Positions 449-14,576 of a DNA stretch of 27,190 nt are shown here, one piece after another. Below the pieces are notes generated by a model. It had not been told where the DNA came from and ran no database searches. It saw only the letters and a list, made by a program, of their open reading frames with translations. Position 1 is the first letter of the stretch. Every line of letters starts with the position of its first letter. The stretch lies in IMG/VR virus record IMGVR_UViG_3300025082_000054, positions 1 to 27,190 of that record; one strand, given 5' to 3'. A program made the position numbers and the translations under genes. Source of the DNA: a virus.

Positions 449-3427
449 ATGGCAATAACAACAAGAAAAAGATACAGTAAAGGTAAACGAGTAGATATGC
501 GACAAGGTGGTCGAGTAAGTTTTCAAAAAGGTGGTCCTGGCAGAACTCCAAGAGGTCCTAACAGCAGATCTGATAGAACAACTCGTGAGCCTAATGGTGA
601 TAGAACTACTCGTAGACCTCGCACTACTACTACAACACCTATACCTACGACTACAGTGACTACAACTCCTAGTGCTACTACAACTCCTAGTGCTACAACA
701 ACTCCTAGTGCTACTACAACTCCTAGTGCTACAACAACTCCTAGTGCTACAACAACTCCTAGTGCTACAACAACTCCTAGTGCTACAACAACTCCTGGTG
801 CTACTACAACTACAGCATTACCTACAACAACTACAACAACAGTTGCGCCTAGAGATCCGATTACTATTCCACCAAGTACAGGAGATTATACTCCACAATA
901 TGCAGATCGTACAGATCCACAAGCAGAAGCAGCTAGAGAATACGTACAACAAGCTGCAGAAGGAAAACTTCCAGCAGATGCAATAATACCTACTGCTGTT
1001 CAAACTGATAAAGGAATTCAATTTGAAGAAGATAAAATTCCTCAAATGGTAGATACAGGAGTAGCAACTGCAGGAGTAGCACAAGTAGGAGATGCAGAAG
1101 CAGTTTCAAAAGGAATTTCAACTGCAGCAGCAGATCCAGCAACTATTAGTGCGGCTACATACGATGCAGAAACAATATCTGGAAGAACTCCAGATGTTAT
1201 AGCTGCTGAAGGAGAAGTTACTAGAGAAGCAGAAGCAGAAGAGATTCGGCAACTAACTGAAAAAGCAGTAGCTGCAGGAATGCCTCCAGATGAAGCTCTG
1301 GAAAAAGCTAAAGCAGATCGTGTTGTTGGAGCTTTAAGCGCAGGAGCAAAAGCAGAAAAACAAACTGGAGTAGGCGCTCAAATTGCAGATACACCACAAG
1401 CAGAAGCAAAAGCAAGACAAGCAATCACAGGAGAAGCTCCGCAAGGAGATGAAGCACAAATAGGTGGTATACCTACTTTTACTGCAGCCACGAGACAGGC
1501 AGTAACAGGAACAGCACGAACAGGTGCGGCAGCATCGATGGTAGCAGAAGTAGGAGCATTGCCTCCTGATATTACAGCAGCTATTGTTGAAGATCCAGCT
1601 ACTGTAGAAGCTCAAATAGATGATCAACCTGTAGAAGTTCAAGCAGCAATTGCGGCATTACCTGAAGAAGCATTGGTTTCTTCACAAATGGAAACACTTA
1701 TAGCAGGTATAGAAGAAGGAACAACTCCTGCTTGGGCTAGACCAGCCGTAGCAAGAGTAGAAGAAATGCTTGCACAACGAGGCTTGGGTGCTTCAACAGT
1801 TGGTAGAGATGCATTGTTTAATGCTATTATACAAACTGCTTTACCAATGGCACAAAATAATGCACAAGCTTTACAACAACGTGCAGCACAAAACTTATCT
1901 AATCAGCAACAAGCCAACTTAGCACAATCTACACAAGATATGCAAAGACGAATGGCAAATCTTTCCAATCGTCAAACTGCTGAAAGTCAAACAGCACAAA
2001 TGGCACAACAGATTGCCGTACAGCAAGGACAGTTTAGACAAGAAGCTGTATTAACTTCGGCACAGCAACAACAGCAAACGAGAATGCAAAATTTGCAAAA
2101 TGCTCAACGTGCTGCTGAATTGAATACACAGCAACAACAGCAGATGAATATTCAAAACTTGGCAAATGCCCAGCAGATGGAAACTATGAATTTGCAGTTA
2201 GAATCTGAACGATTAGGTGCTGAATTTGGTGCTGAACAACAAACAAGACTTACCAAATTCCAAACTTCTTCTGAGTTCATGGCACAGAACGCAGCTTTTA
2301 CACAAGATATGAATAAAGCAAATCTTTCATCAGAAGAAAGATTAAATTTAGCAAACTTGTCAGCAATGAACCAAGCTGCTGCTGAAACTATGTCAAGTGC
2401 TGAAAAGACAGAGTTAGCTAATCTTCAAGCTAAAATGCAAGTAGGTATTACAAATGCTAATCTTGCTAATGCTATGGGTATTTCACAATTAAGTTCAGAT
2501 CAAGCAATAGCTATAAATAATGCACAAACTGTTGCAGGTATGGACATGACACAGTTTAGTGTAGATCAACAAACACAACTTGCAAATAGTAAATTTATGC
2601 AATCAACATTATTACAGGATTTTAATCAAAGACAACAAGCAGCTATGCAAAATGCTACAGCATTAGCAAGTCTTGATTTAGCAACAGTAGATCAACGAAC
2701 AAAACTTGCTGTAACTAATGCTCAAAATTTCTTGGCAATGGATATGGCAAATCTTAATAACGAACAACAAGCTAATGTATTAGAAGCTCAGATGGCACAG
2801 CAAGCTTTATTAAGTGACCAAAGTGCGACCAATGCTTCTAAACAGTTTAATGCTACTAGTATAAATCAAACTAATCAGTTTATGACAAACATAGCAACGC
2901 AGATAGATATAAATAATAAGACAAGAATGGATGCTATGGAACAGTTTAATGTAAGTGCTGATAATCAAGCAGAAGCTAGAAGATTTGCGGCAGAAACAGA
3001 TGTTTCTAAATTAAATGCACAGATAAGAACACAGGTTTCACAGTTTAATGATCAACAAGATTTTCAACGTGATCAATGGAACAAAGCAAACCAAACTGCT
3101 ATTATGCAATCAAATGTAGAGTGGAGAAGAAAAGCAAATACTATTGATACTGCAGCACAGAATGCTGTGAATCAGCAAAACGCTCAAAATGCTTTTGGAT
3201 TAAGTACACAAGCTATGACGTTTATGTGGCAAGAGCTTCGTGATCAAGCAAGTTATGTGTTTCAAGGAGAACAAAATGAAGCACAAAGACAAGCTGGATT
3301 GTTTAATACAATCTTAGGTCAAGCTGCAGAAATTAGAGATTGGGGAAAATTACAAGAACCATATGCAGATATGGTTGATAGTGTAAGCAGTTGGTTTGAC
3401 GTAGATCCACATACGGGTTCTTATTAA
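449..3427 (+). CDS. Large Gln/Asn-rich virion structural protein with mucin-like repeat
   Basis: This 992-aa protein has four visible regions. Residues 1-50 are basic and carry the peptide GGRVSFQKGG (20-29). Residues 59-132 are a Thr/Pro-rich linker with eight six-residue repeats (71-118). Residues 140-450 are Ala/Glu-rich. Residues 450-990 are a long Gln/Asn/Ala-rich, mostly helical region with a degenerate repeat of the type NLSNxQQA (for example NLSNQQQANLAQ and LNNEQQANVLEAQ), ending in a Trp/Phe-containing stretch. Such NLSNEQQA-like helical repeats are known to me from structural proteins of marine phages. No enzyme motif is visible. It is followed by a 28-base gap with a good AGGAG ribosome binding site for the next virion gene. 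A fibre-like or internal virion protein is the most reasonable call; the exact role is unknown. Confidence 0.8.
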   Translation: MAITTRKRYSKGKRVDMRQGGRVSFQKGGPGRTPRGPNSRSDRTTREPNGDRTTRRPRTTTTTPIPTTTVTTTPSATTTPSATTTPSATTTPSATTTPSATTTPSATTTPSATTTPGATTTTALPTTTTTTVAPRDPITIPPSTGDYTPQYADRTDPQAEAAREYVQQAAEGKLPADAIIPTAVQTDKGIQFEEDKIPQMVDTGVATAGVAQVGDAEAVSKGISTAAADPATISAATYDAETISGRTPDVIAAEGEVTREAEAEEIRQLTEKAVAAGMPPDEALEKAKADRVVGALSAGAKAEKQTGVGAQIADTPQAEAKARQAITGEAPQGDEAQIGGIPTFTAATRQAVTGTARTGAAASMVAEVGALPPDITAAIVEDPATVEAQIDDQPVEVQAAIAALPEEALVSSQMETLIAGIEEGTTPAWARPAVARVEEMLAQRGLGASTVGRDALFNAIIQTALPMAQNNAQALQQRAAQNLSNQQQANLAQSTQDMQRRMANLSNRQTAESQTAQMAQQIAVQQGQFRQEAVLTSAQQQQQTRMQNLQNAQRAAELNTQQQQQMNIQNLANAQQMETMNLQLESERLGAEFGAEQQTRLTKFQTSSEFMAQNAAFTQDMNKANLSSEERLNLANLSAMNQAAAETMSSAEKTELANLQAKMQVGITNANLANAMGISQLSSDQAIAINNAQTVAGMDMTQFSVDQQTQLANSKFMQSTLLQDFNQRQQAAMQNATALASLDLATVDQRTKLAVTNAQNFLAMDMANLNNEQQANVLEAQMAQQALLSDQSATNASKQFNATSINQTNQFMTNIATQIDINNKTRMDAMEQFNVSADNQAEARRFAAETDVSKLNAQIRTQVSQFNDQQDFQRDQWNKANQTAIMQSNVEWRRKANTIDTAAQNAVNQQNAQNAFGLSTQAMTFMWQELRDQASYVFQGEQNEAQRQAGLFNTILGQAAEIRDWGKLQEPYADMVDSVSSWFDVDPHTGSY
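659..802 (+). repeat. 18-bp tandem repeat encoding (TTTPSA)x7 + TTTPGA
   Basis: Eight uninterrupted 18-base units encode seven copies of TTTPSA and one TTTPGA (residues 71-118 of the 992-aa protein). Units differ mainly in the first Thr codon (ACT or ACA), which indicates recent unit duplication. The result is a mucin-like Thr/Ser/Pro linker, likely extended and possibly O-glycosylated. Copy number may vary between related phages. Confidence 0.95.
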
Positions 3428-5039: not shown

Positions 5040-5633
5040 ATGGTAGAATTAGATTTAGGAACAATTAGAACACCAGACTTTGAGAAACCGATTCCTGGTC
5101 AAGGATTAATGTCAGATCCAGAGAATCCTATGGCTTTTGAAAAACCTGCTGCAATATCAACTTTATCAGATGGTATAAATAAAGTCTTTCTTACAGTAAC
5201 AGAAGAAGGCTCTTTTGAAAGCATACTAAACTCTATGAAAGCTGGTATTGCTATAACTGAATTAACACATTTTATATTGTTTGAAGGATTTAGAAAAGGT
5301 ATGTGGAATCCTGATTTGATGTTAATGTTGGCAGAACCTGTAATGTTTATGTTAATAGCTTTTGCAGAAAAAGCTAGTATAGACTATGTTCTTTACGAAG
5401 GAGAAGAAGAGGAAGAAGAAGGAGAATTAAGTGATGAAGAAAAAATTGAACTGAACCAAAGATTCACACAGATTATAGAACAGCAGTTAAGAAACGGAAG
5501 TAAGGTATCTACTTTGCCTTCTGAAATGCAAGAAAGATTAGAAGAATTAGAAATACCAGAACAGTTTAAAGAAAAGAGTCTTATGGAAAAAACAGAAACA
5601 ACAACAGAAGAACAAACTGAGGAGATAATATAA
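5040..5633 (+). CDS. Small virion-operon protein with hydrophobic helix and acidic tract
   Basis: This 197-aa protein has a hydrophobic helix at about residues 92-109 (PDLMLMLAEPVMFMLIAFA) and then a run of Glu (121-127) inside a wider acidic segment (120-137). The C-terminal half is Glu-rich and helical. A ribosome binding site (CGGAG) lies upstream. Its TAA overlaps the next ATG by one base (TAATG at 5631-5635), a typical translational coupling arrangement. No family is recognised. Its place among proteins that look like internal virion components suggests a partner or scaffold role in that structure, which is an inference. Confidence 0.75.
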   Translation: MVELDLGTIRTPDFEKPIPGQGLMSDPENPMAFEKPAAISTLSDGINKVFLTVTEEGSFESILNSMKAGIAITELTHFILFEGFRKGMWNPDLMLMLAEPVMFMLIAFAEKASIDYVLYEGEEEEEEGELSDEEKIELNQRFTQIIEQQLRNGSKVSTLPSEMQERLEELEIPEQFKEKSLMEKTETTTEEQTEEII

Positions 5634-8600
5634 TGGCTAGTAGTAGCAGATGGAGAGGTATGGGCGCAAGAGAAGCTGAAAGTTATCGTTCTGAAAGAAC
5701 AGGCTTTATGAGAGCTGCTGATGAAGAAGCTGATAGAAGATCTAGTTTTAAAGGAAGACTCAGAGAGGCTGGAAAAGTTTTCGGTCTTGAGCTTATAGGA
5801 CAAGTATTTAAAGGTATTGGTAAGTCTGGTCAAAAAGATTTATTTAACCAAGTAGTAGCTAATGCTGGTAATAGATCATATAGTTTGAATCAAGTATTAG
5901 AAAAAATTAATCCTATGAAAACCTATATGGCAAATTTTGAAGCTCAAAAAGCGTTAATAGCTAAAGACGGAGGAGAGATAGGTATACGTAATCCAATGGA
6001 TAAAACAGACTATACTGCTCATTTTTTGACAAAAGCTGGTTTTAATGAAGCAAGCCACCTGGATACTTTGAGAGCAATGTTAGGAGGAAGAGATGCAGCA
6101 GGTGTGCCTAAAACCACAGATATGAGATTAATAGACATACAGAATTATATGGCAACAGCAGAGCCAAGAATCCAAGAAGATGCAAAGCGTATGATAGAAA
6201 AATACGAAAAGGATTTAGGATATTTTGGTAATTTAAAGGATAAAGAAACAGGTGTTCTTTTAACATCTGCGAATGTACAAAAAAGAATTGATCATATTGA
6301 AGGATTATTGAAAGTACAAACAAAGGCAGCTACATTAGACGGACAACTTGTAAGTATTTCGCAACTTGATGGTTGGTTATATAAATTAGGAATAACAGAC
6401 GGAAATGTTATATCAAATATTATTAATGATGTACAAAACGAAGATATAGGTGATGGATTAAAAAGAAGGCTTTCTTTTAATATAAGTGATAGTGTAGCTG
6501 ACGAAGATTTTGAAATAATGGTAGATACTCTTTTGACAGGTTGGAATCAGATTCAAAAGGATTTTACTGCTGAACAAAAAGAAGAGCTTAGAGAGGCTGG
6601 TGCAATATTAAATAAACCTGAAGATAATAGTAATAAAGATGTTGCTGAAGCAGAAAAGATTGTGGATCAAACTAAAGATACTGCACTAGCAGCAGGAGAA
6701 GGCTTTAGTTATAAGGATGCTGCAAAACATATTGGTTTTAAAACAGACCTTGCACCTTTAACAGATGCACAACAAAAGCAAAGAATATTAGATGGTTTAG
6801 ATGCGCTAATGGAAGCAGAAGCGGTTTATCTTGCAGATCAGACACCTGAAGGAAGGATAACATACAGAGATGCGACTACGAAGATTCTAAAAACAGTTGG
6901 CAGATACAGAATAAAGGATGCATTTGCAGCAGGTGCAACAGATGACTTAAATAATATGAAACTTAGGGTTGCTAAAGTATTGGCAACTGGTACTAATTAT
7001 AAGGATCTTGACAAAGGAGACAGACAATTATATGAAGCATTTTTTACTACTGGATCTAAGGTTACTAAACCTAAAAATCTACCTTATAGTTTAGGACCAA
7101 CTAGTGAATTAAATGCTTATAAATCTGGTCTTAATATCTTAGAAGGTCTTAGGTATAATTCATCAGGAGATTCTCAACAATTTGTTAATGAAAGAGTAAA
7201 TTTCTTAATAAATAAAGGTTGGTTATCTGAAGCTAATAGACAAGAAAAGACAAGTCAACTTTTAGATTTTATACAATCAAATCCAGCAGCAGCTAGATCG
7301 GCTGGTAGTGTTCTAGAGCATATGATAAAAGCTTTAAATAACGATGATCCTTCTATAGCTTCTTTTGGTGGTGCTTATTCATCAGCTATAAATAACTATG
7401 TTCTTGCAGGAGAACAAGATTTAGGAGATATAAAAGCAAAAGCTTTAACAGATGTATTAACTATGTCTTTTACACAAAGCGAAACTGGAGGATTGTTTGG
7501 TTTGAAAAATTTTGATAAAATGTATCAAGTAACAGGTATAGCAAACACAAAAGGAATAGGAAAAGGTTCTGATTGGGCAATATTACTAGGAACAGATATA
7601 CTTTATGATAAAGAAATAGCAGGTGTTAAAAATTCTCAAGTAATAAGAAGTTATACTGATCTTGATGAAGAGAAAAAACTAGCTATTGATACAATATCTA
7701 GACAATTTATAAATTGGGAAAATGGTGATGGTGAGTTTAGTTCTAAATATACTGGTGATCCTAAAAATAAAAAACCAAGTGTAAATCAAATTACAAATAT
7801 GATAGATAGATATGATTATTTATATGCAACTGCAAAAGAATTAGGAAAAGTAAGTCCAGATATTGCTGAAAGATTAAATCCTTTTATTAGAACATCCGAA
7901 GATATGACAAATTTTGGAAGACAAGAATTTAATGCTGCATATGATTATCTAAGAGATTCTGTATATTCAGAACTTGCGTTTTATAATGTTGCATTAAATA
8001 AAGAAGCTACTGCTGTATTTGATAATGTATTTAGTGAAGGCAAGTATCCTTCTGATACAACTAAAAAAGAATTAGATATAGATACACAGATGGATGAATT
8101 AGACTTAGAAGAGATTGTGGTTACAGCACAGAAGAAAGCAGAAGATATTACTGCTGTAGAAACAGAAGAAGAAATACCAGGTACAGAAAAATCTAGAAGG
8201 CAATTACGACAAGAAAGGAGACAAGAAAGAAGAGATGCTCGTGGTTGGGAAGATAAAGCAACTGTTGCAGCATATACATTAATGTCTATTCATCCTGCAA
8301 ATGCCATTAGAAAATGGGCAGTAAAGAGAGCAGGTCCACCAATAATGGCTAGAACATATTTATCAATAGGAAACGCTATGTTAAAAGGTAAAAATGTAGT
8401 TAATATTAAAGGAAAAATAGATTCGCTTATTTTTAAGAATGATAAATTATTTAATCTTGCACAAAAAAATATGCCTAAGTGGAAAGTAAAAAATCCTAAT
8501 AGTACAGAAGGTAAAGCTAGATTAGCAGTTTTACGAAGAAAATGGATAGAAAAAGAAAAGAAAAAACAAATAAAAGGTTTAAATCCTAATGTTAGGAAAG

Positions 8601-8878
8601 GTGTTATTAAAGACAGTAAATGGTATAAAGACTTATCTGAAAAAGATAAACTTATAGTTAATGAAATATTAAAAAATCCAAAGTATACTTATGGTGGTAA
8701 AACTACTGTTACGGCAGAAGAAGTAGGTAGAGCATGGTTATTACAAAGATTTACTAAAGAAGCAGCAACGGAAGCAGTCAAGAAATATGGACCTGGATTT
8801 GCAACTACAGCAGGATTTATGTCTTTGCTTGAAAAAAGAAGACGAAGTAAAAACGAAGAAGAAGAAGCTATAGAATAA
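5633..8878 (+). CDS. Very large internal-virion-type protein carrying a TonB-box-like peptide
   Basis: This 1081-aa protein is mostly helical and charged, without a recognised catalytic motif. Its size and its place directly before an even larger protein resemble the gp15-gp16 pair of T7, whose products are ejected into the cell and span the envelope. At residues 825-838 it has LEEIVVTAQKKAED, close to the TonB box of TonB-dependent outer-membrane receptors. Beyond it come a Glu-rich stretch and then Arg-rich repeats (855-871, RQERRQERR). The C-terminal 200 residues are basic and end with an acidic tail. The start overlaps the previous stop by one base and has a GAGGAG ribosome binding site. 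The virion assignment rests on context; the ejection role is inferred. Confidence 0.75.
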   Translation: MASSSRWRGMGAREAESYRSERTGFMRAADEEADRRSSFKGRLREAGKVFGLELIGQVFKGIGKSGQKDLFNQVVANAGNRSYSLNQVLEKINPMKTYMANFEAQKALIAKDGGEIGIRNPMDKTDYTAHFLTKAGFNEASHLDTLRAMLGGRDAAGVPKTTDMRLIDIQNYMATAEPRIQEDAKRMIEKYEKDLGYFGNLKDKETGVLLTSANVQKRIDHIEGLLKVQTKAATLDGQLVSISQLDGWLYKLGITDGNVISNIINDVQNEDIGDGLKRRLSFNISDSVADEDFEIMVDTLLTGWNQIQKDFTAEQKEELREAGAILNKPEDNSNKDVAEAEKIVDQTKDTALAAGEGFSYKDAAKHIGFKTDLAPLTDAQQKQRILDGLDALMEAEAVYLADQTPEGRITYRDATTKILKTVGRYRIKDAFAAGATDDLNNMKLRVAKVLATGTNYKDLDKGDRQLYEAFFTTGSKVTKPKNLPYSLGPTSELNAYKSGLNILEGLRYNSSGDSQQFVNERVNFLINKGWLSEANRQEKTSQLLDFIQSNPAAARSAGSVLEHMIKALNNDDPSIASFGGAYSSAINNYVLAGEQDLGDIKAKALTDVLTMSFTQSETGGLFGLKNFDKMYQVTGIANTKGIGKGSDWAILLGTDILYDKEIAGVKNSQVIRSYTDLDEEKKLAIDTISRQFINWENGDGEFSSKYTGDPKNKKPSVNQITNMIDRYDYLYATAKELGKVSPDIAERLNPFIRTSEDMTNFGRQEFNAAYDYLRDSVYSELAFYNVALNKEATAVFDNVFSEGKYPSDTTKKELDIDTQMDELDLEEIVVTAQKKAEDITAVETEEEIPGTEKSRRQLRQERRQERRDARGWEDKATVAAYTLMSIHPANAIRKWAVKRAGPPIMARTYLSIGNAMLKGKNVVNIKGKIDSLIFKNDKLFNLAQKNMPKWKVKNPNSTEGKARLAVLRRKWIEKEKKKQIKGLNPNVRKGVIKDSKWYKDLSEKDKLIVNEILKNPKYTYGGKTTVTAEEVGRAWLLQRFTKEAATEAVKKYGPGFATTAGFMSLLEKRRRSKNEEEEAIE
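8108..8131 (+). other. TonB-box-like peptide EEIVVTAQ (residues 826-833)
   Basis: These bases encode EEIVVTAQ, followed by KKAED. TonB boxes of marine proteobacterial receptors typically read EEIVVTAQKR or similar; classical ones are DTIVVTA and DTITVTA. The match is seen directly. That it binds TonB is an inference. It lies in a charged, probably flexible part of the protein, where a linear motif could be exposed. Confidence 0.5.
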
Positions 8879-8880
8879 TT

Positions 8881-11800
8881 ATGGCTAATATTACTCATAA
8901 AGAACAAATAAATTCTTTTAGAAGAGCTTTGCTTTCCTCCGATCCTTTTGATTCACAAGAGGAAGAAGAAGATGAAGAAGATGAAGAAGATGAAGTAGTA
9001 GAGAAAATAGAAGAAACAGGGGAATTTTCTTATTTTGTTCCTAGAAGAACAGAAGAGACCACACAAGATATTCCTTATTACGATAGACAATTAAAAAACT
9101 TTCGTTCTGCGCTAACTACTCCAGATGAAATAAAATTAGAAAAGTCAGTTCTTAATTACGATGATAGGTATCCTGTTAATCCTAAATCAATACCTCCTGG
9201 TGATATTTCTTATATCAAAACCTTAGACGATTTCATAAAAAACAAAACAATTAATCAAGTAGCCTACGATTTCTTTCAAGAAATGGGAGAAGAAGGTAAG
9301 GCTACTGATATGGCATATTATTTTAGAAAAGAAATTTCTATTGATGATATGATCAGAAGAATGAATCAATCTAAGAAATGGTCTAATAAACAAAAAGAAA
9401 GATATATGCTTTTAAAAGAAACATTTGATAATACAAGTTGGTCAGATTCTAGTTTTCAACAAAAGTTTAAATCAGTTAGACAGTATGGTTGGCAAGCAAT
9501 GTCAGATCCTTCTATGATAGTTGCAATGCTTCTTGCGCCTTTTACAGGAGGAGGATCTATTGCAGCTCGAACAGGAGCTACAGAAACAGGAAAATTTATG
9601 ATAAGACAAGCTGTAGCTAATACTATGAGAAGTGGTTTAACTAAAAAGAATGTACACTCTTTAGCAAGAAGTTTTGTTTCTACTCCAGCTAAAAGTACTG
9701 CAACTTTTACAGGTGCATTTTCTGGAGTAATGAATAGATTGAATCAAGAAGTAGAGATGCAGTTAGATCCCGAAAAAAAAGGTGTAAATTATACAGAATG
9801 GGCAACACACACAGGATTGGGAATTGTTCTTGGTGCAGGTTTAGCAAAAGGTATAGAAAAAATTCCAGTTGTAACAGCACCTATAAAGAATGCCATTGCT
9901 AAAGTCTATGAAAAAACAGATGAATTAACAGGACAAAAACTAACTGCTAGTGTAGAAGTAATGCAGCAGCATATTGATTTCGGTATGGGTAGAAGTTTTA
10001 GTCCAGCAGTTGTAGAGTATAAAGTGCCTGCTAAGTATTCGTCAGATTTAAAATCTATGCTAGAATCTGTAAATGCTAAAGCACTTATAAGAACTTATCA
10101 GCAAGCACAAGAGAAAATTCCTAATACTTATACAGACGATGCTTGGTCATTGACAGGAAAACTTGTTGCTGAACTTACAGATATTCTAGAACCTTTAAAA
10201 TCTGGAGCTAGAACAAGAATACAGCAAGCAAAAATACAAAAAAAATCTACATTAGATCAACTTAGAGGAGGTTGGAAAGGACTAGATAGAATAGACGATG
10301 AAACAAATAAATTACTTTCTGAAGCAGTTCGTGGCGGTATGTTCGAGAAACAACCAGGAATAACTTCTGTAAAAATTTCTAAAGAAATTATAAATGCTGC
10401 AAATAAATATGGTTATACAGTAAGTGATTTTACAAAGGCAGCAATAGGATTAAGAAGATTAGATGATGCAGCTTTTGAAATTGCTGTAAAATCAGGTCTT
10501 CCTTTAAAGCACGTTAAAAATCACTTTCCTCGTGTATATTCTAAATATCTAAATACTGATGAAGGGCAAGAAATATTTATTAAAGAGTTACTAAGAAGTA
10601 AACAGGTAGATTCAAGACAACAAGCAAAACAATTGATTGATGAAATGTTAGATAAATCAGATAGGTTTGGATTAGGATCTAATATTAATTCAAGATTTGC
10701 AAGAACTATAGATAAAATAGATGATACAAAAATAACAGATATATTAGATAATAATGTAGAAGAAGTATTTAGAAAATATTTTTGGGATATTGCAAAATTA
10801 AGTGCTGAAGCAAGGCATGGAGGAATACCTAAATTACCTACAATGTTAATAAAAGGAAAGAAAGGATTTATTGTAGGTGAAAATACAAGAGGATTAGGAA
10901 AAAAAATATATGACAAAACTAAAGTAGGCGGAACAATAGAACAACAGTTAAAAGCTGCAGGTAAAGAACATTTAATAAGTCGAAAAGATTTAAAAAGACT
11001 AGAAAAAATGTGGAAATTTACAATTGGTGATCTTCCACAACTGGAAGGAAAAGCAAGACTTGCTTCTGAAGCTTGGCAAGTTGTAACTCAAGTAGCTACT
11101 CTACCACTAGCTACGCTTACAAGTTTGTCAGAAGTATTTGTACCACTAACACGAATAGATGCACCTAATTATGTTTATAATTTAACCAAAGTAATGGCTG
11201 TTCGTAGTCAAAATACAGCAAGACATATGTATAAAGCAGTAGCTGTTAATAAAACTCCTAAATGGCTTACTAAATCAGAAACATTAAGAGATGCAAATAG
11301 TGTGTTTGTTGCTTTAGATCTAGCAACTATGCAAAGACTAGACTCTATTTTTGCTGGCGATATTAAAAATCCTATGTTAAAAGGAGTACAAAGAGGATTC
11401 TTTAGACTTAACTTATTAGCTGAATGGACAAAGACAGTTGAGCTGGCTAGTTATATGATGGGTAAAGACCTTATTAAAAAGAATGCTAGAAAATTAGCTA
11501 AAGGAGGATATTCTAAACCATCAATAGAAAGATATACGCTAGAATTAAATGAATTAAATATAGACATACCAACTGCAATAAAATGGGCAAATGGGCAATT
11601 AGCTAAAGAACAAAAGCTTTTATTTGAAAGACAAATAAATGAAGGAGGAGGTCGTTTTGCAAGGCAGGTTATTCTTAATCCTAAAAAAGCAGGACTAACT
11701 TCGCTATGGCTTCAAGATCCTAGATACAATGTTCTAACACAACTGTTATCTTATCCTTATGCTTTTGGTAATACTATCATGAAACGCTTTGCACAAGGAA

Positions 11801-13956
11801 TGTTGCAAGGACCAGTACAATCAGGACAAGCTTTGGTTGGTGGTACGCTGATGGCAATGACAGGTATCATGGGTAACGAATGGCGTACTCAAGGAGAAAG
11901 AACATGGGGAAAACGCTCAGATGCTGAAGTTATTTCAGAAGGTATTAAGCGTGTTGGTGGTTTAGGAATGTTAGAATATGTTTGGAGAGGGTTTCAACAA
12001 TTAGAATATAGCCAATATGGAGGATTAATAAAACTATTAAAAATGACTCCTCTTATGGGAAGTCCTACAGGATCAGATTTTATTGACTATCTTACTGGTA
12101 CTAAATCAATGTTAGAAATAATAGTAACAAAATCTCCAGGTTTTTATGCTTATTCTAAACCAGTACAACGGAAACTAATTAAGTGGGCAAAAGAAAATAG
12201 TGCTGAATCTAGAGATAAAATGTATCGTTTATTAAAATCAAAAGGAGTAACAAAACCTGAACAGCTAGGTTATCCTAAAAGAAAACCACAATTTGAAGGT
12301 GGTGCAATCTCCGAAGACTTTCCAGTTCCTAATGTAGCTGCTGATCCTTCAGAGAGAATAGATCCGAATACAGGCTTGCCTTATGACGAGCCTTTAGAAA
12401 GATTAGGATTCTCTGGAGGTGGTTTGCTAAACGGAGTAGAAGATCCGTTGGCTCGTTTAGGATTCACAGGCGGTGGAGGCTTGATGGTATCCATCGGTGT
12501 TGCACCTGTATCAGAAAAACAGATGAGTAAATTTGAAAAAGCTTTGAAGAAACGTAAAGCTAAAAGAGATGGTGGATATACAAGAGAACAATATTTTCTT
12601 GGATCTATTGGAGATGTGGCTAAACAGCAATTAGAAATAAACCCGAAAGATAGATGGGAAATAGAATCCATGAAAAATATTGATGAAGATGCAAATGCAC
12701 TTGCTTTATGGCTTCAAGTTCCTACTAAAACTGAAGCTGAAATTGAAAGAGATGAAGATAGAGCCGAACAAGAAAGGCAAGGAATAATAGATAGTAATCA
12801 ACAAAGTGTTTTATTCTCATTTCCAGGAGTAACTAGCTTAAGAGATGCTTTAGAAATAAGACAAGCCAAACGAGATGGTGGAAGGATTGGATTTCAAGAA
12901 GGTACACCAACGATGGAAGAAATAACAGTAACAGCACGAATGCCAAGCCTTCAAAGAAGACTTAAAGAAAGAGCCCCAAGATACGGTCAACAAAGACCTG
13001 CTTCTTGGGAGCGTTATCCTACCTTACGTTCTGATTGGAAACCAATAGATCCTGGAAAATTTGCAGAATGGGGAGGCGCAAATATGCCTATAACTGATGA
13101 ACAATATGAAGAGTGGGGAAAACAAGGTTATTCTTATGATGATATACAAGAATCATTAAAAGATATAGCAATTGCAAATGAAAAAGCATGGGATGAATTT
13201 GTAAAAACTTCAGTTTTAGATGAAGCTACAGGTCAAAGATACTCACAAGAAGAGTGGAAAAAGATGCAAAGAATTGGTAGTAAGGAAAGGAAGTTAGCAA
13301 AAAAACTAAAAAAGGCAACGAAAAAAGCAGCAACAGAAAAAAGAGATAAAGAAGCTAGTGGTGGAAGGATTGGGTTTGCTGAAGGTAGCATTAGTTTGCT
13401 AGAAGTATTAGGTAGAAGAAAAGGTAAGTTTCTTTTAGAAGAAGATATAATAAGTTCTGATGCTTTTGCAACACATAGTGAAAAGGAGTTTCAAAAAGCT
13501 CTTAAAGAAGGTATAAGCAAAAGAGCAGCAGTAGCGGTGTCTAAAGATAAAGGATTACCAGCACGTTTAAAAGAAACATCAATGAAAGATTTAGTAGCAG
13601 CTCAAAAAGAATATGGAAAGCCTATATATTTAGCAGATTCTACTGTTGGAAAAGACTATAAAATAGAAAGACAAAATCTGTATTATAGAAATCTAAAAGA
13701 TTATAAACGACAAGGTTATTATAACGATCCTGAAGGAAATAAAATAACTAGTCAGCCTCCTTATCAAAAAGGAGGAGACTCTTACCATGTCGAAGGACAA
13801 GCGATAGATTTAAACCAACCTTACTACAGAGATTATAATAGAAAAGAACTTGCGGAACTTATTCCTATTTTAGGAAAATATGGATTTGTACAAGACGATA
13901 AAGAAGAATGGCATTTTAGTCAAGGTGAACAAAGTCAAAGAAATATTTTTAGATAA
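8881..13956 (+). CDS. Giant internal virion protein with C-terminal M15 peptidase domain
   Basis: This 1691-aa protein starts with two copies of a short motif (INSFRRALLSSDP at 10-22 and LKNFRSALTTPDE at 71-83) around a very acidic tract (26-39). Hydrophobic stretches lie near residues 211-221, 311-322, 732-756 and 981-999. Residues 1150-1510 are a linker region with short repeated motifs, including GGRIGF twice and the TonB-box-like EEITVTAR. The C-terminus has the zinc-site signature of M15 peptidases (VanY/D,D-carboxypeptidase type): SYHVEGQAIDL with H1636 and D1643, and EWHF with H1678. It therefore probably cuts peptide stems of peptidoglycan during entry, the task done by the transglycosylase domain of T7 gp16. 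Only two bases separate it from the previous stop and no clear Shine-Dalgarno is visible, suggesting coupling. Confidence 0.85.
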   Translation: MANITHKEQINSFRRALLSSDPFDSQEEEEDEEDEEDEVVEKIEETGEFSYFVPRRTEETTQDIPYYDRQLKNFRSALTTPDEIKLEKSVLNYDDRYPVNPKSIPPGDISYIKTLDDFIKNKTINQVAYDFFQEMGEEGKATDMAYYFRKEISIDDMIRRMNQSKKWSNKQKERYMLLKETFDNTSWSDSSFQQKFKSVRQYGWQAMSDPSMIVAMLLAPFTGGGSIAARTGATETGKFMIRQAVANTMRSGLTKKNVHSLARSFVSTPAKSTATFTGAFSGVMNRLNQEVEMQLDPEKKGVNYTEWATHTGLGIVLGAGLAKGIEKIPVVTAPIKNAIAKVYEKTDELTGQKLTASVEVMQQHIDFGMGRSFSPAVVEYKVPAKYSSDLKSMLESVNAKALIRTYQQAQEKIPNTYTDDAWSLTGKLVAELTDILEPLKSGARTRIQQAKIQKKSTLDQLRGGWKGLDRIDDETNKLLSEAVRGGMFEKQPGITSVKISKEIINAANKYGYTVSDFTKAAIGLRRLDDAAFEIAVKSGLPLKHVKNHFPRVYSKYLNTDEGQEIFIKELLRSKQVDSRQQAKQLIDEMLDKSDRFGLGSNINSRFARTIDKIDDTKITDILDNNVEEVFRKYFWDIAKLSAEARHGGIPKLPTMLIKGKKGFIVGENTRGLGKKIYDKTKVGGTIEQQLKAAGKEHLISRKDLKRLEKMWKFTIGDLPQLEGKARLASEAWQVVTQVATLPLATLTSLSEVFVPLTRIDAPNYVYNLTKVMAVRSQNTARHMYKAVAVNKTPKWLTKSETLRDANSVFVALDLATMQRLDSIFAGDIKNPMLKGVQRGFFRLNLLAEWTKTVELASYMMGKDLIKKNARKLAKGGYSKPSIERYTLELNELNIDIPTAIKWANGQLAKEQKLLFERQINEGGGRFARQVILNPKKAGLTSLWLQDPRYNVLTQLLSYPYAFGNTIMKRFAQGMLQGPVQSGQALVGGTLMAMTGIMGNEWRTQGERTWGKRSDAEVISEGIKRVGGLGMLEYVWRGFQQLEYSQYGGLIKLLKMTPLMGSPTGSDFIDYLTGTKSMLEIIVTKSPGFYAYSKPVQRKLIKWAKENSAESRDKMYRLLKSKGVTKPEQLGYPKRKPQFEGGAISEDFPVPNVAADPSERIDPNTGLPYDEPLERLGFSGGGLLNGVEDPLARLGFTGGGGLMVSIGVAPVSEKQMSKFEKALKKRKAKRDGGYTREQYFLGSIGDVAKQQLEINPKDRWEIESMKNIDEDANALALWLQVPTKTEAEIERDEDRAEQERQGIIDSNQQSVLFSFPGVTSLRDALEIRQAKRDGGRIGFQEGTPTMEEITVTARMPSLQRRLKERAPRYGQQRPASWERYPTLRSDWKPIDPGKFAEWGGANMPITDEQYEEWGKQGYSYDDIQESLKDIAIANEKAWDEFVKTSVLDEATGQRYSQEEWKKMQRIGSKERKLAKKLKKATKKAATEKRDKEASGGRIGFAEGSISLLEVLGRRKGKFLLEEDIISSDAFATHSEKEFQKALKEGISKRAAVAVSKDKGLPARLKETSMKDLVAAQKEYGKPIYLADSTVGKDYKIERQNLYYRNLKDYKRQGYYNDPEGNKITSQPPYQKGGDSYHVEGQAIDLNQPYYRDYNRKELAELIPILGKYGFVQDDKEEWHFSQGEQSQRNIFR
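8965..8991 (+). repeat. 9-bp GAAGAAGAT microrepeat (x3)
   Basis: Three perfect units encode EED repeats in the acidic tract of the 1691-aa protein. It is a simple-sequence stretch that could expand or contract by slippage without changing the frame. Confidence 0.85.
12388..12477 (+). repeat. Duplicated (E/D)PLxRLGF(S/T)GGG motif
   Basis: Residues 1170-1181 (EPLERLGFSGGG, bases 12388-12423) and 1188-1199 (DPLARLGFTGGG, bases 12442-12477) are a clear duplicate, separated by six residues. They fall in the linker part of the giant virion protein, shortly before the GGRIGF motifs, and share the Gly-Gly and Gly-Phe features. Confidence 0.8.
12877..12894 (+). repeat. GGRIGF tag, copy 1 (residues 1333-1338)
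   Basis: The context is AKRDGGRIGFQEG. The first 14 bases (ggtggaaggattgg) are identical to those of the second copy at 13360. An AKRDGG without RIGF also occurs about 110 residues earlier. A related GGRVSFQKGG is present in the 992-aa protein. Confidence 0.85.
12916..12939 (+). other. TonB-box-like peptide EEITVTAR (residues 1346-1353)
   Basis: These bases encode EEITVTAR, preceded by TPTM. The core ITVTA equals the core of the E. coli FhuA TonB box (DTITVTA, known). It lies five residues after a GGRIGFQEG tag and about 290 residues before the M15 metal site of the same protein. Binding to TonB is inferred, not shown. Confidence 0.45.
13360..13377 (+). repeat. GGRIGF tag, copy 2 (residues 1494-1499)
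   Basis: The context is EASGGRIGFAEGS, directly before the segment leading into the M15 peptidase domain. It is nearly identical at base level to the copy at 12877. Confidence 0.85.
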
Positions 13957-13999: not shown

Positions 14000-14158
14000 A
14001 TGTTACTATACACTGAAGAACAACTTGAAAGGGCTTATGAAATTTATAGAATTTATCAAATAAAACAAGACTTGTCTTTTATGGTCTTAGAGAATTTTAG
14101 AAAACTCTATGAAGAACTAGTAGAGGAAATATTAAAAGAAGATGGGCTTTCCGTTTGA
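14000..14158 (+). CDS. Small conserved phage protein, possibly leaderless
   Basis: This 52-aa frame begins MLLYTEEQLERAYEIYRIYQ and continues with FRKLYEELVEEIL. The MLLYTEEQL start and the FRxLYEELL-type end resemble small hypothetical proteins I associate with marine phages, though I cannot confirm this here. No Shine-Dalgarno precedes the ATG, and the consensus promoter upstream would start transcription at or within a base or two of it, so a leaderless mRNA is possible. It overlaps the next gene by 17 bases. It has no membrane segment and its function is unknown. Confidence 0.65.
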   Translation: MLLYTEEQLERAYEIYRIYQIKQDLSFMVLENFRKLYEELVEEILKEDGLSV

Positions 14159-14576
14159 AATAATTACTATGCTTGGTTCGACTTTGCTTAGTGGATTACT
14201 AAGTGTATGGTCGCAAAGCCGTAAGGCTAAAGCTGAAGCACAAAAGCTATTAATAGCTAGAGGTAAGTTTCAACTTGAGGCTATTCAAGCTGCAAGAACT
14301 GATCCTAATAAAGGCTTCCAGTGGACAAGAAGGATCATAGCCTTGACTGCTGTTTTTGCTATTGTTTTATTGCCGAAACTTGTAGCTGTGTATTATCCAA
14401 CTGTGGATGTAACTGTGGGTTATACAAATTGGCGACCTGGATTTATGTTTTTCAGAGAAGGCAGAGAGATTTTTGAATGGATCACATTTCAAGGGTTAGT
14501 AATAACACAACTAGATACTAATTTAGTATCAGCTATTATTGGAATGTATTTTGGTGGTAGCTTAGTAAGAAGATAA
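14142..14576 (+). CDS. Three-helix membrane protein, holin candidate
   Basis: This 144-aa protein has hydrophobic segments at about residues 5-21 (FEIITMLGSTLLSGLLS), 65-84 (IIALTAVFAIVLLPKLVAVY) and 113-140. A basic amphipathic helix lies between the first two (KAKAEAQKLLIARGKFQLEA). The length and three membrane segments fit the range of phage holin-like proteins, and similar proteins (GFQWTRRIIALTAVFAI type) occur in marine phages, to my recollection. No single motif proves holin function. It follows the 52-aa gene with an overlap and is probably transcribed from the promoter at 13965. Two further small membrane proteins follow, so this looks like a lysis or membrane module. Confidence 0.7.
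   Translation: MGFPFEIITMLGSTLLSGLLSVWSQSRKAKAEAQKLLIARGKFQLEAIQAARTDPNKGFQWTRRIIALTAVFAIVLLPKLVAVYYPTVDVTVGYTNWRPGFMFFREGREIFEWITFQGLVITQLDTNLVSAIIGMYFGGSLVRR

What the first reader, a model, noticed from the sequence alone, without database searches (positions are those of the whole stretch)
8102..8146. TonB-box-like peptide in a 1081-aa virion protein
Residues 825-838 read LEEIVVTAQKKAED, which is nearly the TonB box of marine TonB-dependent receptors (EEIVVTAQKR type). Colicins carry TonB boxes to use TonB for import (established for colicins B and Ia). If this protein is ejected like T7 gp15/gp16, the peptide could reach periplasmic TonB and draw on the proton motive force for DNA entry. 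The motif is seen; the mechanism is inference.
Basis: partly seen in the sequence, partly recalled or inferred. Interest (0 to 1): 0.82.

Follow-up and report, generated by a model that had tools for sequence, protein, structure and literature searches.

The report
TonB-box-like peptides in phage ejection proteins
An uncultured marine tailed phage carries, in two of its large proteins thought to be injected into the host, a short peptide that looks like the handle (TonB box) by which bacterial outer-membrane transporters grip the cell's TonB motor; similar peptides turn up in tail proteins of many unrelated phages, which suggests, but does not prove, that some phages draw on TonB while entering.

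Summary
The peptide is real: LEEIVVTAQKKAED is encoded at 8105-8146 (residues 825-838 of the 1081-aa ORF 5633-8878). A composition model expects about 0.0015 EEIxVTA in the window; there are two. A relative, L002, also has two in its copy of that protein, one upstream of an SLT transglycosylase domain. In IMG/VR the motif recurs in unrelated phage proteins, many of them tail or virion proteins (tape measure, tail tube). It reaches about three times more protein families than its reversal. A subset shows the flanks of receptor boxes (hydrophobic before, K/R after). The 1081-aa protein has no detectable homologue, 0 of 99 positional equivalents have the box, and 159 relatives chosen without reference to the motif have almost none. 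Nearby phages of Pelagibacter lack it too. Yet other clade members (L012, L032, L071/L327) have it in different proteins. That is how a short linear motif behaves, gained and lost repeatedly. TonB engagement by ejected proteins is the best reading (about 45%). TonB binding, host and ejection are all untested.

The parts
8105..8146 (+). TonB-box-like peptide 1: LEEIVVTAQKKAED (core EEIVVTA 8108-8128), residues 825-838 of the 1081-aa protein
   Evidence: Translation; only EEIVVTA match in the record
12913..12945 (+). TonB-box-like peptide 2: MEEITVTARMP (core EEITVTA 12916-12936), residues 1345-1355 of the 1691-aa protein
   Evidence: Regex hit at residue 1346; aligned to MEEIVVTGRMP in L002
5633..8878 (+). 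1081-aa protein, gp15-like by gene position only; no detectable homologue
8881..13956 (+). 1691-aa giant virion protein, gp16-like; residues 502-1036 match PHROG 7348 (endolysin) and 731-982 match PHROG 6958 (virion structural protein)
   Evidence: distant homologues in 40 of 79 and 44 of 80 related loci
13489..13953 (+). C-terminal VanY/M15-like peptidase region of the 1691-aa protein (SYHVEGQAIDLN...EWHF)
   Evidence: Sub-threshold VanY match, E=0.056; the reading of the motif residues is by eye
12877..12903 (+). GGRIGFQEG linker immediately before box 2
12277..12480 (+). Conserved linker island (residues 1133-1200, FEGGAISEDFPVPN...RIDPNTGLPY...RLGF) upstream of box 2
   Evidence: 40-62% identity in homologues whose other parts do not align
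5040..5633 (+). 197-aa protein of the same cassette, gp14-like by position and length
   Evidence: 37% identical to HTVC103P gp54, 33% to HTVC115P gp42
449..3427 (+). 992-aa virion-region protein; its relative in L032 carries EEIVVTA
   Evidence: 35-42% identical over part to HTVC103P gp59 and HTVC115P gp47; L032
3456..5021 (+). 521-aa protein of the same cassette, no box
   Evidence: weak matches to HTVC103P gp58 and HTVC115P gp45
14142..14576 (+). 144-aa membrane-type protein used as clade marker
   Evidence: 78% identical in L012, 62% in HTVC103P

Best explanation
The two peptides are TonB-box mimics in flexible linkers of proteins that a T7-like podophage ejects into the periplasm, in a lineage whose host is rich in TonB-dependent receptors. 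[quoted passage not shown] That would tether the ejected proteins to, or let them be pulled by, the proton-driven Ton complex while the trans-envelope channel forms. Shown: the sequences, their excess over chance, a copy in each of two neighbouring virion-region genes, and recurrence in unrelated phage tail proteins. Inferred: that the proteins are ejected (gene order), that the linkers are exposed, that TonB binds, that force is used, and the nature of the host.
For: Two boxes in adjacent genes of the window and two in the relative L002, where the window expectation for EEIxVTA is about 0.0015. Flanks match receptor boxes: [LIM] before, Q/T/K then K/R after. Boxes occur in different proteins of the same clade: L012 (600 aa), L032 (992-like), L071/L327. 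In IMG/VR, EEITVTA lies in 36 ORF families (complete scan) and EEIVVTA in 32 non-receptor families (truncated scan), against 11 for the reversed ATVVIEE (complete scan). The receptor-type flanks are over-represented among EEIVVTA families (6 of 32, P=2e-4). Families with such flanks include tape measures (L018, L079/L023, L117/L105/L054), a tail tube (L404) and a virion structural protein (L394); L097, with a Cell Wall Hydrolase domain, carries EEIVVTA without those flanks. Receptor boxes on viral contigs sit just before Plug. Published precedent: pyocin S5 uses such a box (PMC7064778; Ton review PMC7014051).
Against: Not conserved: 0 of 99 positional equivalents and about one hit in each of two relative sets of 79 and 80 loci. 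Absent from the large virion proteins examined in HTVC115P, HTVC103P, CRP-804 and KM23-C739. Tape-measure homologues in Marinobacter phage PS3 and two Rhodoferax genomes lack it. The flank signature is not significant for EEITVTA families (P=0.08). Host unknown; no TonB could be tested; structure models uninformative. Some hits are in proteins that should not see the periplasm, e.g. an ssDNA-binding protein (L050). No paper in the searched library reports such boxes in virions.
Confidence: 0.45

Rival explanations
1. The peptide is a general short linear motif for something other than TonB, for example a beta-augmentation or docking tag used in virion assembly or in packing ejection proteins, which only resembles a TonB box.
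For: It occurs in structural proteins of several virion parts, including a T4-type tail tube N-terminus (L404), baseplate and neck proteins (L085, L100) and Pro/Thr/Ala-rich linkers with two to three copies (L016, L061, L118). Beta-rich hits such as L410 and L376 look like ordinary strands.
Against: A tag read by a phage's own capsid or portal should be conserved within a phage clade, and it is not. It gives no reason for receptor-type flanks or for a shared sequence across unrelated phages.
Confidence: 0.25
2. Chance or functionless similarity: EEIxVTA is easy to make from common residues in Glu-rich linkers, and the reader picked the one window that has it.
For: Absent from nearly all relatives. 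In one sample of related loci the forward motif is no commoner than its permutations. The scan covers millions of contigs.
Against: A second unselected copy in the window (expected 0.0015) and two in L002; about three times more families than the reversed motif; over-represented receptor flanks among EEIVVTA families; box 2 retained in L002 with changes at permissive positions.
Confidence: 0.25
3. The peptide marks a proteolytic processing site ([LIM]-x-E before a cut), not a TonB box.
For: [LIM]EE precedes I in the cores; from memory, T4-type prohead proteases cut after [LI]xE.
Against: Recalled, not tested. It does not explain the recurrence of IxVTA and the following K/R, and no prohead protease was looked for or noticed in the window.
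Confidence: 0.05

Closest known systems
TonB box of TonB-dependent receptors (BtuB, FhuA and marine receptors)
   Same: Core EEIVVTA plus flanks, as in receptors met here (LEEIVVTATKRETNL, FEEIVVTATKR)
   Different: Receptor boxes lie at the mature N-terminus before a Plug domain; here the box is internal in a large phage protein without Plug or barrel
TonB-dependent bacteriocins (colicins B and Ia; pyocins S2 and S5)
   Same: A foreign protein carries a TonB box in a disordered region and uses Ton for entry (PMC7064778)
   Different: Their box is near the N-terminus of a secreted toxin that uses an outer-membrane receptor; here it is in a putative ejected phage protein, internal, with no receptor known
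Filamentous phage g3p binding TolA
   Same: A phage protein engages the Ton/Tol family of energised periplasmic proteins during entry (cited in PMC7014051)
   Different: Filamentous phage, folded g3p domains and TolA; not a TonB-box peptide in a tailed phage
TonB-dependent phages T1 and phi80
   Same: Entry needs TonB (PMC7014051 for T1; phi80 from own knowledge)
   Different: Dependence is known through the receptor; no TonB box in their virion proteins was looked for here
T7 gp14/gp15/gp16 ejectosome
   Same: Gene order small-medium-giant and a lytic-type domain in the giant protein
   Different: No detectable sequence similarity to any solved structure; the lytic-type region is at the C-terminus

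Membership tests
TonB box (short linear motif) | Core sequence of receptor boxes, EExxVTA type | tested here: met
   EEIVVTA and EEITVTA with receptor-type flanks; receptor boxes seen in L095, L038, L089
TonB box (short linear motif) | Binds the TonB C-terminal domain | not testable with these tools
   No binding or complex modelling available
TonB box (short linear motif) | Lies in a flexible, periplasm-accessible segment | tested here: inconclusive
   Box 1 is followed by a very hydrophilic stretch (1st percentile); box 2 in a low-pLDDT linker; both models too poor to decide
TonB box (short linear motif) | Conserved among homologues as an island | tested here: not met
   No homologue of the 1081-aa protein; 0 of 99 positional equivalents have the box. 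Box 2 is kept in L002 but inside a wholly conserved block
TonB-dependent receptor | Plug domain and beta barrel | tested here: not met
   No Pfam Plug in the 1081- or 1691-aa proteins
T7-type ejection proteins | Position: gp14/gp15/gp16-like run of small, medium and giant genes in the virion cassette | tested here: met
   197, 1081 and 1691 aa in order; same order in HTVC103P, HTVC115P and many viral loci
T7-type ejection proteins | Sequence or profile similarity to gp15/gp16 | tested here: not met
   No hit in PDB sequences; the giant protein matches PHROG endolysin and virion structural families
T7-type ejection proteins | Present in virions and ejected into the host | not testable with these tools
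   Needs proteomics or cryo-ET

The most novel reading that the evidence does not exclude
Tailed phages of receptor-rich Gram-negative hosts repeatedly evolve TonB boxes in proteins that reach the periplasm during entry (ejection proteins, tape measures, tail tube and baseplate N-termini, hydrolases), and so couple genome delivery to the host's TonB motor; phages of hosts without TonB lack them.
Probability: 0.3. Interest if true: 0.87.

Novelty: new variant of a known kind. Interest (0 to 1): 0.6.

Why it matters
How podophages and siphophages get proteins and DNA across the periplasm, and what energy they use, is still only partly understood. Phage use of Ton is known through receptors, and use of Tol through filamentous phages. 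A TonB box inside ejected or tail proteins would give a peptide-level handle that can be tested with a binding assay and a tonB-null host. It would also give a sequence marker for phages that depend on TonB. Full-text searches of the open library found no report of it.

Tried and rejected
Homologues of the 1081-aa protein: none in IMG/VR with the patterns used or in INPHARED by tblastn at E<=1; profiles of 91 positional equivalents do not match it. Conservation of the box as an island in the clade: rejected with 79 and 80 relatives chosen without reference to the motif. 'Characteristic of the pelagiphage group': rejected. Box as a remnant of a receptor gene: no Plug or barrel nearby. Known host in genomes: the single genome-contig scan with the tape-measure alignment gave two Rhodoferax loci and one unassigned MAG, all without the box. 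Structure: AlphaFold for the 1081-aa protein (pLDDT 37.6) and the C-terminal 561 aa of the giant (38.0) too poor for a fold search, so none was run. Solved-structure search: nothing. One near-mode search was wasted on a 100-base stretch. The small-protein family L005/L063 (EEIVVTA before a hydrophobic segment) looks like an ordinary conserved family, not a box.

Full report
What is in the window. The 27,190-base record is a fragment of a tailed phage. Its DNA polymerase and primase are closest to Pelagibacter phages HTVC115P, HTVC103P and HTVC104P (45-51% identity). The virion genes run on the + strand: 992, 521, 197, 1081 and 1691 aa, then a 144-aa membrane-type protein and an Hsp20. HTVC103P and HTVC115P have the same order next to Hsp20. 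They share the 992-aa and 197-aa proteins at 33-42% identity, but nothing recognisable as the 1081-aa protein. By order and size the 197/1081/1691 run resembles T7 gp14/gp15/gp16; this is inference. The 1691-aa protein matches PHROG families called endolysin and virion structural protein, and its C-terminus has a sub-threshold VanY-like match (E=0.056).

The observation. Residues 825-838 of the 1081-aa protein read LEEIVVTAQKKAED, at 8105-8146. L002, the only other contig found with a close relative of that C-terminal half, has MEEIVVTGRMP at the same place. It has a further PIEEIEVTAKKRP upstream of a transglycosylase SLT domain. The two changes between window and L002 in the first box (T to V, A to G) fall at positions that receptor boxes also vary (own knowledge), but the whole surrounding block is conserved, so this is not an island.

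Chance. A first-order Markov model from 657,726 aa of related phage proteins gives 1.75e-7 EEIxVTA per residue: about 0.0015 expected in the window and 0.0004 in L002. The window has two, and L002 has one exact plus one A-to-G variant.

Conservation. Two sets of relatives were fetched without reference to the motif: 79 loci through the 992-aa protein and 80 through the 144-aa protein. The box pattern E[DE][IV]xVT[AG] occurs once in each set, at a level permutations reach. Of 99 proteins at the position of the 1081-aa gene, none has the box, and profiles of the three main groups show no detectable homology to it.

Recurrence. L012 shares the 144-aa protein (78%), Hsp20 (71%) and a distant giant protein, and has LEEIVVTATRPKAVED in a 600-aa protein. 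L032 has it in its 992-like protein. L071, like its homologue L327 found without the motif, has PPPPELEEIVVTAQKRNETGPEL. Beyond the clade the motif lies in tape-measure proteins (L018, L079/L023, and L105, L117, L054, with two copies in L105 and L117), at the N-termini of tail or virion proteins (L028 METELEEIVVTAKPL; L404 tail tube MADETKLEEITVTAKKRE; L394 MGDRLEEITVTATRR; L041), in a protein with a Cell Wall Hydrolase domain (L097), and in up to three copies in Pro/Thr-rich linkers (L016, L118, L061). L028 has two boxes in two proteins. Complete scans give 36 ORF families for EEITVTA and 11 for the reversed control ATVVIEE; the truncated EEIVVTA scan gives 32 without receptors. The control families are a primase, a kinase, a terminase and mostly unknowns. 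Among EEIVVTA families 6 of 32 have both a hydrophobic residue at -1 and K/R at +2 (P=2e-4), among EEITVTA families 3 of 36 (P=0.08). One reversed heptamer is a limited control, and functional labels exist for only part of the families.

Gain and loss. Tape measures homologous to the box-bearing L105/L117/L054 but from Marinobacter phage PS3 and two Rhodoferax genomes have no box in the same linker. Presence in some members, absence in close relatives, and reappearance in unrelated proteins is what a short linear motif shows.

Mechanism. TonB boxes of receptors pair as a strand with the TonB C-terminal domain, and pyocin S5 uses a box in a disordered segment to draw on the proton motive force (PMC7014051; PMC7064778). 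If the 1081- and 1691-aa proteins are ejected, their boxes would be in the right compartment. That step, linker exposure, TonB binding and force are not shown. AlphaFold models were too poor to judge burial. The host is unknown. The nearby isolates infect Pelagibacter and lack the box; whether Pelagibacter has TonB was not tested here. SAR86, one receptor-rich marine candidate, has abundant TonB-dependent transporters (PMC11582366), but nothing here ties this phage to it.

Verdict.

Noticed in passing
L059:6513-8522, L004:3859-5850, L043:613-2649: Viral contigs, apparently T4-like (L059 lies in a 94-kb contig among genes that read like RecA/ssb/helicase genes), encode whole TonB-dependent receptors with a signal sequence, the box EEIVVTAQQEK and, in the family member tested (L089), a Plug domain; 22 of the 89 EEIVVTA hits in real ORFs are this family. 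A phage TonB-dependent receptor was reported for a marine megaphage (PMC9723777).
   Followed up: partly
12277-12480: Residues 1133-1200 of the giant protein form a conserved island (FEGGAISEDFPVPN...RIDPNTGLPY...RLGF), 40-62% identical in phages whose other parts of this protein do not align. Function unknown.
   Followed up: no
L028:2168-3457, L404:1272-2186, L394:1944-4667, L041:3194-4654, L107:527-1852: Tail, tail-tube or other virion-type proteins begin with a TonB-box-like peptide within about the first dozen residues, as bacteriocins do.
   Followed up: partly
L016, L118, L061, L008: A family of Pro/Ala/Thr-rich phage proteins, some with a conserved C-terminus (LSDGEYVxxAxxVAxLGDGS), carries several EEIVVTA or EEIVVTG copies in otherwise variable linkers.
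   Followed up: no
449-3427: The 992-aa protein has an N-terminal array of TTTPSA repeats and a Gln/Asn-rich C-terminal half that is conserved across the clade.
   Followed up: no
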